Shown here piece after piece: positions 12,913 through 60,065 of a stretch of DNA of 64,000 nt. Under the pieces are notes generated by a model. It had not been told where the DNA came from. It did not search any database and worked only from the letters and a program-made list of their open reading frames with translations. Source of the stretch: Mariprofundus sp. EBB-1 (lineage in GTDB: Bacteria > Pseudomonadota > Zetaproteobacteria > Mariprofundales > Mariprofundaceae); assembly GCF_003665155.1 (NCBI RefSeq), contig NZ_RCFQ01000005.1, positions 1 to 64,000 on the forward strand, given 5' to 3'. Position 1 is the stretch's first letter; each line of letters begins with the position of its first letter. A program made the translations under genes and the position numbers.

Positions 12913-13725
12913 CTATGATTCATCGGGTTTTGCTTTACTCAATTGAAAGCGCAGCTTCTCCAACGCTTGTTGTGTTTCATGCAACTCATCCATCAACTGA
13001 TCACGCGTTGGCGGCACGCGCATCTCTTTCAGACGCTCCTGTTTGGCTTCATCCAGATTATTGATTACCACAGCGATAAACAGGTTGATGATCACAAACG
13101 TGCCCATAATTACAAACGACACAAAATAGATCCAGCTCAAGGGGTGCATGGCCATGGCGGTGTACATCAGGTCAGTCCAGTCCTCTAAGGTGACAATGCG
13201 AAACAGCGTTAACAGTGAAATACCAAGATTACCCCAATGTTCAGGATCATGCGCATGAAACAGTTGCTGCCCAGCTACGGCATAAATATAAAAGATCACA
13301 CTCATCAGAAGCATGACATTGGCCATACTTGGGATGGAGCGCATCAATGTAGTCACAATCAAACGCAGTTCGGGAATAGCAGAGATCAAACGCAGCACTC
13401 GCAACAGACGCGCTAATCGTGCCAGCATGGCTAACTCACCCGTACTCGGGATCAGGGCTAATAAAATGATGGTAAAATCAAATACATTCCAACCTTCACG
13501 AAAATAGTTACCAACTTTCGGAGAAACAGCATAGATCTTCAACGTAGCTTCAATGATAAATATCGTTAATACAATCCTGTTACCCCACGTAATCCAATGT
13601 CCATATTGATCCACTAAATCAGTCGATGTCTCCATGCCAATCAACACCGCACTGAGCAAAATAATTCCAATAATAAAACGTTCAAAGGCAACGTGGGCAA
13701 TAATATTTTGAGCCAGAAGTTTCAT
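12913..13725 (-). CDS. Voltage-gated cation channel, NavBac fold, with Ca-channel-like acidic filter
   Basis: The product is 270 residues from ATG 13725, chosen because GGAGA lies about seven bases upstream; the longer ATG at 13743 overlaps that site. Six TM segments: S1 ~17-35, S2 ~47-66, S3 ~80-93, S4 ~98-118 with Arg every third residue (LARLARLLRVLRL), S5 ~128-155 and S6 ~192-220. The pore loop reads T179-L-E-D-W-T-D185, where NavAb has TLESWSM. The tail (~225-270) is charged and helical, as expected for the tetramerising neck and coiled coil. The family forms homotetrameric Na+ or Ca2+ channels. Asp at two positions used to make engineered CavAb Ca2+-selective suggests Ca2+ permeation; that is inference. 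Confidence 0.9.
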   Translation of the reverse strand: MKLLAQNIIAHVAFERFIIGIILLSAVLIGMETSTDLVDQYGHWITWGNRIVLTIFIIEATLKIYAVSPKVGNYFREGWNVFDFTIILLALIPSTGELAMLARLARLLRVLRLISAIPELRLIVTTLMRSIPSMANVMLLMSVIFYIYAVAGQQLFHAHDPEHWGNLGISLLTLFRIVTLEDWTDLMYTAMAMHPLSWIYFVSFVIMGTFVIINLFIAVVINNLDEAKQERLKEMRVPPTRDQLMDELHETQQALEKLRFQLSKAKPDES

Positions 13726-14089
13726 ATAATTTTCTCCACACATCCAATTTTATGCATCAGTATGAGTCACAAGGCGCGCAGCTTACTTTTCTTATCTGTG
13801 AATTTAAACCAACATAATAGATTGCCTTACACTCCCCCTATGAATCGCACTACGCAGCACTTTCATATATGGCAAAACACAAAATCTATTTATTTAAAAA
13901 GGAAAAGGGCTCGGATCATTATCCAGCCAATAGGATGTTTTAGCGGATATACGAAATAACACCTGGAAAGATGCTACAACAATGCATCAGCCAACCTGAT
14001 ATTCATCCTCAGGAAAACATACAGCATCCACTACAAACGGGTAAAATATAACGATCCAACACACCTAAGTGCCGTACCTTCATGACAGC
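13726..14089. other. AT-rich spacer with no supported gene
   Basis: These 364 bases separate the channel gene from the 3' end of the sugar operon; both are on the minus strand. An 88-codon plus-strand frame overlapping the channel start has no ribosome binding site and no recognisable features, so I do not call it. The channel promoter is presumably here, but no clear -35/-10 pair stands out. Confidence 0.5.
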
Positions 14090-57358: not shown

Positions 57359-59239
57359 TCAGGTTTCCACCTGTTCATAACGGACCACTTTATTGCGACC
57401 AGACTCCTTAGCCTCATAAAGCGCGGTATCAGCCAGACCAATACAAGCGGACAGATCACTCTCATTAGCCGGATACATCGACATGCCGATGGACATGGTA
57501 ATGCTAAAACTGCCCTGAGCATCCTTCATTTCAAAGGCTTCAATATTTTTGCGGATACGCTCTGCAATTTCATGTGAGCGAACTTCATCAGCATCCATCA
57601 AGAGCACAACAATCTCTTCTCCACCATAACGTACAATAAGATCGCTGGCCCTGACTGCATCCTTTAGAATGGCCGCGGTTTCAACCAACACCTGATCTCC
57701 ACTGGCATGGCCACGTTTATCATTGACCTGTTTGAACAGATCAATATCACACATCAACACACCAAGTGATGAATTACGGCGGCTGACAGATGCCTCCATA
57801 CTCATGGTAAACTCTTCGAGGAAACGCCTGTTATACATACCGGTCAGTGCATCACGTAACGATGATTCTTTCAAACTGCGCATCAGACGCTTGGCCTCGA
57901 TTTCTGGCGCCGCCACACGCAAATAGTATTCAAGCAGAGATACTTTTTTCTCAATATCAGGCTGTTGGGTCACATCAAAAATAATCTGCAGCACTACACC
58001 ATCACCATCTGAATTGAGCACTGGGAGACAGATATGCCGCAAGCCAACACAAGACTCTTTGCAGTCGGCACAGAAAGGCGGACAGATTCCCTGATCATTA
58101 CGAGAATCCACCATACGCACACTACGTTTGGCTCTACATGCCTGTGCATCTTCCATCACATCCGATGAACACCAACCCTCAAGTCCATCAGGTAAACCTG
58201 CCGAGGCAACAGGTACACTTCTATTTCTCAATGAGGATATTTCATACAATACAAACTGTTCAATGCCAAAATCATGCAATAAAATACGCTGAAAATGTTC
58301 ATAGACCTCTTCAAGATTTCTATCCGCCTCAATCTCCTCCTTGAAACGCACCGCCGATGTCAGATTATGTACAACGTTGGCCATGTGCTGCATAGGTTCC
58401 AGATTGCTGTCGTTAAACATTTCACCGGTCAAGCCTTCGATATCTCGCGCAATAGCACCAATATGATCCTCCAGCGACTGCATCAAAAGGTTTGTGCTAG
58501 TTGAAATATCACCAATCTCATCATTTGACTCATATGCAATGCGCTGTGAAAAGTCACCATGTCTGGCCTTACTAAACACGGATGTAATCTGGCCGACAAT
58601 ATCCATCATTGGTAAAAATATTCTGCGCATAACAAAAGCAAACAAAACACCAACAAACAACAGCAGTGCAATCAACTGATAAATAGCTGATTTGATCGCA
58701 TCTTCAGCATCGCTCAAATCCACCTGCACAGACAGCCCGCCTAGCACATCACCTTCAGCGGCATCGTGACACTTCATACAATTCAAGGCGCCATGAGATG
58801 ATGCAATCAAGGGGCCATTATAGTGGTAAATCTTGATCCCGTTTTCATTCACTTCAATCTCTTCTGAAGACTTCCCCGAATTGAGCATTCTTTTCTCAAC
58901 CGCTTCAATTTGACCCTGCGCGGCACGCTTTCCATATTGACGATTAACCAGCTCACCACGTAAGGCCCGCATTTCAATCAATTGAGGGATTTTGGAAAAC
59001 TCATCAAACAAACGACTGATTTCATCGCGCACATGCTCCTTATTATCGGCAAGCAGCATACCCTCCTGCATAGAGTGCAATAAACCGATCCTTGCCATCT
59101 CGACAATAATTAACCCCTCTTTGCGAGCCTGATTTTCGGCGTAATCACGAATCAGGACTGAAACAACAGCACTCACCAATAGTGCCAAAACAAGGGTTAT
59201 TAGAATCGTTAAGCGGTTAACTTTAGTTTTTAGTTTCAT
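57359..59239 (-). CDS. Membrane diguanylate cyclase with periplasmic c-type-heme motif
   Basis: From ATG 59239 (GAGA six bases ahead) the protein has 626 residues. TM1 ~13-30; a periplasmic sensor ~31-186 containing C154-M-K-C-H158, a covalent heme-c motif; TM2 ~187-204; HAMP ~205-260; a GAF-like region with a Cys cluster (CPPFCADCKESC) near 420; and a C-terminal GGDEF domain with active-site GGEEI from 539, preceded by the inhibitory RxxD site (RASD). It should make cyclic di-GMP in response to a redox or gas signal sensed by heme. Synthesis is coupled to the K+ channel gene, which it overlaps by 17 bases. Confidence 0.9.
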   Translation of the reverse strand: MKLKTKVNRLTILITLVLALLVSAVVSVLIRDYAENQARKEGLIIVEMARIGLLHSMQEGMLLADNKEHVRDEISRLFDEFSKIPQLIEMRALRGELVNRQYGKRAAQGQIEAVEKRMLNSGKSSEEIEVNENGIKIYHYNGPLIASSHGALNCMKCHDAAEGDVLGGLSVQVDLSDAEDAIKSAIYQLIALLLFVGVLFAFVMRRIFLPMMDIVGQITSVFSKARHGDFSQRIAYESNDEIGDISTSTNLLMQSLEDHIGAIARDIEGLTGEMFNDSNLEPMQHMANVVHNLTSAVRFKEEIEADRNLEEVYEHFQRILLHDFGIEQFVLYEISSLRNRSVPVASAGLPDGLEGWCSSDVMEDAQACRAKRSVRMVDSRNDQGICPPFCADCKESCVGLRHICLPVLNSDGDGVVLQIIFDVTQQPDIEKKVSLLEYYLRVAAPEIEAKRLMRSLKESSLRDALTGMYNRRFLEEFTMSMEASVSRRNSSLGVLMCDIDLFKQVNDKRGHASGDQVLVETAAILKDAVRASDLIVRYGGEEIVVLLMDADEVRSHEIAERIRKNIEAFEMKDAQGSFSITMSIGMSMYPANESDLSACIGLADTALYEAKESGRNKVVRYEQVET

Positions 59240-60065
59240 GATTAATCTCTTCCTGATCCTGCTTAGTCGCACAATATGGACAATAAGGAAATTCTGGCGC
59301 AATACCTTTTCCACAAGCTTCACATTTCACACCATGGTGCAGGCTGCGCGCAATTTTAACCGAGACTACCGCTGTAACCGCCGCAAACATGCAAATGCCG
59401 ACCACCATCAGGCAAATTGCGATAGCACGTCCGGCCAGCGTATGTGGCACCACATCACCGTAACCCACCGTAGTCATCGTCACGATGCCCCACCACGCCC
59501 CTTCAAAGGCACTCGAAAATGTTTCAGGTTCGATCATATAAATAATATTGCCTGCTAACACTGCACCAAGCGCAATGCCTCCAAACACCATGGCCAGCAT
59601 TTCCAGTGTATCGCGCATCGATGAAATAAATAACCGCATCGAACGCAGATAACGCACCAGTTTAAGCAGCCGAACGATGCGTAATAATCTAATGGCAATA
59701 TTGGGATCGCCGATCAACAACATCGGTAATATCGCCAACATATCGACGACACCGTAAAAACTGAACAGATAGGCACGTAAATTTCTAGCGGAATAACAAC
59801 GGGCTAAGAACTCCACCGCAAATACAACGGTCACCCAGAACTCCAACAGCTGAATCCGTTGGACATCTACGGCGTCCAGCCCTTTCAAGGTACCAAACAT
59901 GGAGACAAATACACTGACAACGATCAACAGGGTAATACTTAAATTGGTTGTTTTACCAAGCTTACTATGCACATCAAACAACATATTATTCAACAGTGCA
60001 CGCAATCTGTTGCCATCCTGTTCATGTTTAAAGGCACGATCAGGTGAATTCGAATCAAGCCGCAT
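59223..60065 (-). CDS. Voltage-gated K+ channel with C-terminal zinc ribbon
   Basis: The 280-residue protein has six TM helices. S4 is RIVRLLKLVRYLRSMRLF (~129-146), and the selectivity filter T-T-V-G-Y-G-D is at 198-204. After S6 (~215-238) a cytoplasmic zinc ribbon is formed by C248, C251, C262 and C265 (CEACGKG, YCPYC). It is the first gene of an operon with the heme-c diguanylate cyclase. Its promoter lies in the 167-base spacer shared with the divergent hybrid kinase. Confidence 0.93.
   Translation of the reverse strand: MRLDSNSPDRAFKHEQDGNRLRALLNNMLFDVHSKLGKTTNLSITLLIVVSVFVSMFGTLKGLDAVDVQRIQLLEFWVTVVFAVEFLARCYSARNLRAYLFSFYGVVDMLAILPMLLIGDPNIAIRLLRIVRLLKLVRYLRSMRLFISSMRDTLEMLAMVFGGIALGAVLAGNIIYMIEPETFSSAFEGAWWGIVTMTTVGYGDVVPHTLAGRAIAICLMVVGICMFAAVTAVVSVKIARSLHHGVKCEACGKGIAPEFPYCPYCATKQDQEEINHETKN

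What the first reader, a model, noticed from the sequence alone, without database searches (positions are those of the whole stretch)
12913..13725. Bacterial NavBac-fold channel with a natural Cav-like selectivity filter (TLEDWTD)
The pore loop reads T-L-E-D-W-T-D at residues 179-185. NavAb has TLESWSM, and the engineered Ca2+-selective CavAb was made by placing Asp at the second, third and last acidic positions of this loop. This protein naturally has the S-to-D and M-to-D changes and keeps the Glu. Native Ca2+-selective prokaryotic channels are few, so this is a candidate for one.
Basis: partly seen in the sequence, partly recalled or inferred. Interest (0 to 1): 0.62.

Follow-up and report, generated by a model that had tools for sequence, protein, structure and literature searches.

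The report
Ancestor-like bacterial voltage-gated cation channel
An iron-oxidising marine bacterium carries a voltage-gated ion channel whose pore sequence looks calcium-selective, but the one native channel measured with exactly that sequence prefers sodium and is blocked by calcium, so the calcium claim does not follow from the sequence.

Summary
On the minus strand, 13725-12913 encodes a 270-aa six-helix channel (Pfam Ion_trans, 175 bits) with TLEDWTD at residues 179-185, exactly at the P1-P2 filter turn by alignment, by AlphaFold model and by match to CavAb/NavAb. The filter is conserved in 24 of 25 zetaproteobacterial orthologues with a readable filter.

The interpretation goes too far. 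TLEDWTD is not rare: it is common in a broad non-canonical BacNav group ('ancestor-like', AnclNav). The native channel NavPp has this identical heptad and was measured as Na+-selective (PCa/PNa 0.31) with Ca2+ block. The same heptad on the CavMr backbone gives 13.8. Only the close mutants TLEDWSD (NavAb) and TLEDWAD (NaChBac) are reported Ca2+-selective. Backbone decides, so selectivity cannot be read off.

What I add: the channel lies in a well-supported short-loop subclade, apart from canonical BacNavs and from the long S6-loop group that holds CavMr (by residue numbering) and probably NavPp. I found no recordings from it. Within it, filter position 4 varies naturally: Asp in most members, Gly in all 16 sampled Chloroflexota homologues (the CavMr Ca2+ determinant), Ser (TLESWTS) in one same-genus orthologue: a natural test panel. 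New member of a known kind.

The parts
12913..13725 (-). CDS of the channel, 270 aa plus stop, ATG at 13725
   Evidence: Ion_trans PF00520 174.9 bits; orthologues start at or near the same Met
13734..13737 (-). Shine-Dalgarno GGAG, 8 nt before the ATG
   Evidence: read
13627..13692 (-). S1 helix, residues 12-33
   Evidence: AlphaFold secondary structure
13378..13431 (-). S4 voltage sensor, residues 99-116, arginines R103, R106, R109, R112 at every third position
   Evidence: invariant in the 16-sequence alignment; helix in the model
13258..13374 (-). S4-S5 linker and S5, residues 118-156
13192..13227 (-). P1 pore helix, residues 167-178
13171..13191 (-). selectivity filter TLEDWTD, residues 179-185
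   Evidence: codons read; aligned to NavMs and NaChBac filters
13153..13179 (-). P2 pore helix, residues 183-191 (overlaps the filter end)
13018..13137 (-). S6 and its cytoplasmic extension, residues 197-236; the filter-to-S6 (L6) loop is short (23 residues between D185 and T209, the position of NaChBac T220)
12931..13005 (-). C-terminal helix, residues 241-265, candidate tetramerising coiled coil as in BacNavs
   Evidence: helix in the model; coiled-coil role inferred from BacNavs

Best explanation
It is a single-domain, homotetrameric, voltage-gated cation channel of the non-canonical ('ancestor-like') BacNav group, in a short-loop subclade from which I found no recordings. Depolarisation moves the four-arginine S4, which opens the S6 gate; four TLEDWTD loops form a pore mouth with twelve carboxylates (E3, D4, D7). 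Most likely these bind divalent cations, so the channel passes Na+ with Ca2+ block and some Ca2+ permeation (NavPp-like) or is weakly Ca2+-preferring and poorly selective. A strict Ca2+ channel is the less likely outcome. Shown here: fold, S4 charges, filter position, conservation, phylogenetic place. Inferred: tetramer, voltage gating, conductance and selectivity.
For: Fold and filter. Place: canonical channels (NavMs, NavSp-type, NaChBac) are split from all TLEDWTD groups at 100/96, the query clade is one group at 99/97, and the long-loop group at 100/99 (filter columns left out). Filter function: NavPp, identical heptad, PCa/PNa 0.308 with Ca2+ block; CavMr with TLEDWTD 13.8; NavPp D4G 41.4; CavMr 218 (PMC7041947). 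Conservation of the heptad in the class.
Against: No recording exists for any member of this clade that I could find, and AnclNavs of Halomonas elongata and Teredinibacter turnerae gave no current in the published test, so function may be hard to show. The query's short S6 loop is like NavAb, on which the close filter TLEDWSD is reported Ca2+-selective (cited in PMC7041947), so the NavPp analogy may not transfer.
Confidence: 0.6

Rival explanations
1. It is a native Ca2+-selective channel: on a short-loop, NavAb-like backbone, E3/D4/D7 give Ca2+ selectivity as in the NavAb TLEDWSD and NaChBac TLEDWAD mutants.
For: The S6 loop has the NavAb/NaChBac length, not that of CavMr; TLEDWSD and TLEDWAD are reported Ca2+-selective on canonical backbones and TLEDWTD on CavMr still gives PCa/PNa 13.8. 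Sister Chloroflexota homologues carry Gly4, the CavMr determinant.
Against: NavPp with the identical native filter is Na+-selective with Ca2+ block, and TLEDWSD/TLEDWAD on NavPp did not give Ca2+ permeation; Gly4 is absent here.
Confidence: 0.28
2. It is an ordinary Na+-selective BacNav, with D4 and D7 of little consequence.
For: Fold and about 39% identity to NaChBac; one same-genus orthologue has TLESWTS, close to the canonical TLESWAS.
Against: It lies outside the canonical clade at 100/96 support, and D4 and D7 are kept in 24 of 25 orthologues with a readable filter, which suggests that they matter.
Confidence: 0.12

Closest known systems
NavPp (Plesiocystis pacifica AnclNav; PMC7041947)
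   Same: identical heptad TLEDWTD; single-domain six-helix channel of the non-canonical BacNav group
   Different: NavPp most likely has the long, Cys-containing S6 loop of its phylum (sampled Myxococcota TLEDWTD homologues: 41-51 residues against 23 here); it is measured, this one is not
CavMr (Meiothermus ruber; PMC7041947)
   Same: non-canonical BacNav group by the published tree; Glu3 and Asp7 in the filter
   Different: TLEGWVD with Gly4 and Val6; S6 loop about 41 residues by its own numbering, with a disulphide (PMC10120453)
CavAb (TLDDWSD) and NavAb TLEDWSD (engineered)
   Same: same charge pattern at positions 4 and 7; short S6 loop; best Foldseek hit
   Different: engineered; Asp3 in CavAb; canonical backbone
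NaChBac / NavMs / NavSp (canonical BacNavs)
   Same: fold, S4 pattern, short S6 loop, C-terminal helix
   Different: TLESWAS/TLESWSM filters; separate clade; 33-40% identity

Membership tests
BacNav / single-domain Ion_trans channel superfamily | six TM helices with P1-filter-P2 loop, Ion_trans profile | tested here: met
BacNav / single-domain Ion_trans channel superfamily | S4 with arginines at every third position | tested here: met
   R103, R106, R109, R112 invariant
BacNav / single-domain Ion_trans channel superfamily | voltage-gated cation current | not testable with these tools
   needs electrophysiology
canonical BacNav (NavAb-like or Bacillus group) | branches with NavMs, NavSp or NaChBac | tested here: not met
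   canonical set is its own side of a 100/96 branch, query outside
canonical BacNav (NavAb-like or Bacillus group) | TLESW filter | tested here: not met
   TLEDWTD
AnclNav (ancestor-like BacNav) | branch distinct from canonical BacNavs, together with NavPp and CavMr | tested here: inconclusive
   distinct branch met, and on the same side as Myxococcota TLEDWTD homologues, but NavPp and CavMr themselves were not in the data; unrooted tree
AnclNav (ancestor-like BacNav) | TLESW-like filter with more acidic residues | tested here: met
   TLEDWTD, identical to the NavPp filter
native prokaryotic Cav (CavMr type) | Gly at filter position 4 | tested here: not met
   Asp at position 4 (residue 182)
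native prokaryotic Cav (CavMr type) | long S6 loop (about 41 residues) with disulphide | tested here: not met
   23 residues, no Cys
native prokaryotic Cav (CavMr type) | PCa/PNa well above 1 | not testable with these tools
   needs electrophysiology

The most novel reading that the evidence does not exclude
The short-loop subclade (Zetaproteobacteria, Gammaproteobacteria, Acidobacteriota, Chloroflexota and others) is an unmeasured branch in which Na+/Ca2+ preference has switched repeatedly in nature through filter position 4 (D, G, S), and the Mariprofundus channel is a Ca2+-selective member that needs no Gly4.
Probability: 0.2. Interest if true: 0.6.

Novelty: new member of a known kind. Interest (0 to 1): 0.33.

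Why it matters
Two channels with the same filter heptad behave differently on different backbones, so filter sequence alone does not predict Na+ versus Ca2+ choice. This clade has canonical-length loops, one backbone at about 50-96% identity and natural D4, G4 and S4 variants (one S4 variant in the same genus). It is a better natural panel for asking what sets the preference than the two divergent channels measured so far.

Tried and rejected
Offset of the motif from the filter: rejected by alignment and model. Rarity of the filter: rejected by survey. Gene neighbourhood as a clue to function: an OmpA-like gene, a quinolinate-synthase-like gene, a pfkB-type kinase and, in gammaproteobacteria, trpE and rpe genes recur (names from my reading of the sequences), but nothing tied to ion handling. 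Linked change of positions 4 and 7: S4 goes with a neutral position 7 in 3-4 of 5 independent pairs, too few for significance (sign test median p 0.25), so suggestive only. NavPp and CavMr could not be fetched by name: the single named-genome scan returned the best 80 only, and a locus id is not accepted as a search centre. A Myxococcota search used as a proxy gave many TLEDWTD long-loop channels. Plasmid hits were only 27-40% identical and not informative. No paper in the library links Mariprofundus with a voltage-gated channel.

Full report
OBSERVATION. The ORF is on the minus strand, ATG at 13725, stop ending at 12913, 270 aa, with GGAG 8 nt before the start. It matches Pfam Ion_trans with 174.9 bits. 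The search placed the window in contig C45 of a 2.88-Mb genome. A same-genus relative in the named collection is Mariprofundus sp. KV (L041, on a contig of 105,288 bases, the same length as contig C3 of same-genus genome G015), so the host is a Mariprofundus-type zetaproteobacterium. TLEDWTD is at residues 179-185, codons 13191-13171.

IS IT THE FILTER? Yes. It aligns with the filters of NavMs (L023, identical to the solved NavMs chain over the aligned part) and NaChBac. The AlphaFold model (mean pLDDT 81, pTM 0.52, 16-sequence alignment) has S1-S6, with the motif in the turn between P1 (167-178) and P2 (183-191). Foldseek puts CavAb and NavAb first (E 3e-14). S4 has arginines 103, 106, 109 and 112, all invariant.

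IS IT UNUSUAL? No. Of 25 zetaproteobacterial orthologues with a readable filter, 24 have TLEDWTD; the exception is TLESWTS in a same-genus species (L019). In hits not chosen by filter, the other Pseudomonadota homologues have TLESWSM (39 of 89) or TFEDWTD (29 of 89), Myxococcota have TLEDWTD in 16 of 28, and all 16 Chloroflexota sequences have Gly at position 4. The named-genome scan used a pattern that contains the filter, so its counts were kept out of the frequencies; that scan does show a few Chloroflexota members with TLEDWTD (L056, L058, L062, L063, L065).

PHYLOGENY. Trees were built without the filter columns. In the careful tree of 46 rows, canonical BacNavs (NavMs, NavSp-type, NaChBac) are split from the rest at 100/96. 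The query clade is one group at 99/97, the long-loop group at 100/99, and a gammaproteobacterial TFEDWTD group at 100/100. The query clade spans Zetaproteobacteria, Gammaproteobacteria, Acidobacteriota, Nitrospirota and Chloroflexota. The trees are unrooted.

LOOP LENGTH. From filter end to the S6 Thr/Ala (NaChBac T220) the query clade, the TFEDWTD group and canonical channels have 23-24 residues. The long-loop group (Myxococcota, Verrucomicrobiota, Balneolota, Gemmatimonadota and others) has 40-51, often with two Cys. CavMr's filter is 183-189 and its G240 corresponds to NaChBac G229, which puts the T220 equivalent at 231 and the loop at about 41: a long-loop channel, as PMC10120453 also describes. 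NavPp T232 corresponds to T220; with a Myxococcota-type N-terminus this also implies a long loop, but that is inference.

WHAT THE FILTER DOES. PMC7041947: NavPp, native TLEDWTD, PCa/PNa 0.308, blocked by Ca2+; NavPp with TLEDWSD is still blocked, and with TLEDWAD shows no inward current in divalent solutions; CavMr with TLEDWTD 13.8; CavMr 218; NavPp D4G 41.4; CavMr G4D 7.73. The same paper cites TLEDWSD on NavAb and TLEDWAD on NaChBac as Ca2+-selective, and notes that TLE(D or S)WTD is the predicted ancestral BacNav filter. One heptad, or near-copies of it, thus gives anything from Na+-selective to Ca2+-selective, depending on the backbone. For this protein, on a short-loop backbone that has not been measured, the outcome is open. 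I put about 0.4 on NavPp-like (Na+ with Ca2+ block), 0.3 on poorly selective, 0.3 on clearly Ca2+-selective; these are judgements, not computed values.

POSITION 4. Across the 131-row tree position 4 changes at least 21 times. Within the query clade Gly4 appears in a large Chloroflexota group and apart from it in two betaproteobacterial sequences (L050, L075) and a Kangiella (L078); Ser4 appears once in the same genus, together with loss of Asp7. A similar joint change (TFEDWTD to TFESWTS or TFESWAT) is seen in the TFEDWTD group. The numbers are too small for a significant test of linkage.

VERDICT. Confirmed observation; the inference to Ca2+ selectivity is contradicted by the nearest functional precedent but not excluded. 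New member of a known kind, useful mainly because its clade offers natural filter variants on one backbone.

Noticed in passing
window 59223-60065 (-): A second Ion_trans protein in the window is a K+ channel (TMTTVGYGD filter) with a C-terminal CxxC...CxxC zinc-ribbon-like tail; a third (L003) elsewhere in the genome is also a TVGYGD K+ channel.
   Followed up: partly
L162, L170, L185, L199 (G103, G150, G132, G216): Adjacent same-strand tandem pairs of BacNav-like genes with different Gly-Pro filters (TTEGWPT/S beside TMEGWPD or TSEGWPD) in two families. In the tree the TMEGWPD/TSEGWPD copies group across both families (95) inside a 100-supported set of six, which suggests an old retained duplication and perhaps a two-subunit channel.
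   Followed up: partly
L019 (G002), 1489-2304: Same-genus orthologue (73% identity) with TLESWTS in place of TLEDWTD: both extra Asp replaced by Ser.
   Followed up: yes
L240-L257, L049, L051, L060, L064: Chloroflexota homologues of the query (42-60% identity) all have Gly at filter position 4 in the unbiased sample (16 of 16), the CavMr Ca2+ determinant: candidate native Ca2+ channels, better than the query itself.
   Followed up: partly
L143, L152, L164, L166: In the gammaproteobacterial TFEDWTD group, TFESWAT and TFESWTS appear as two separate sublineages that lack both Asp4 and Asp7.
   Followed up: partly
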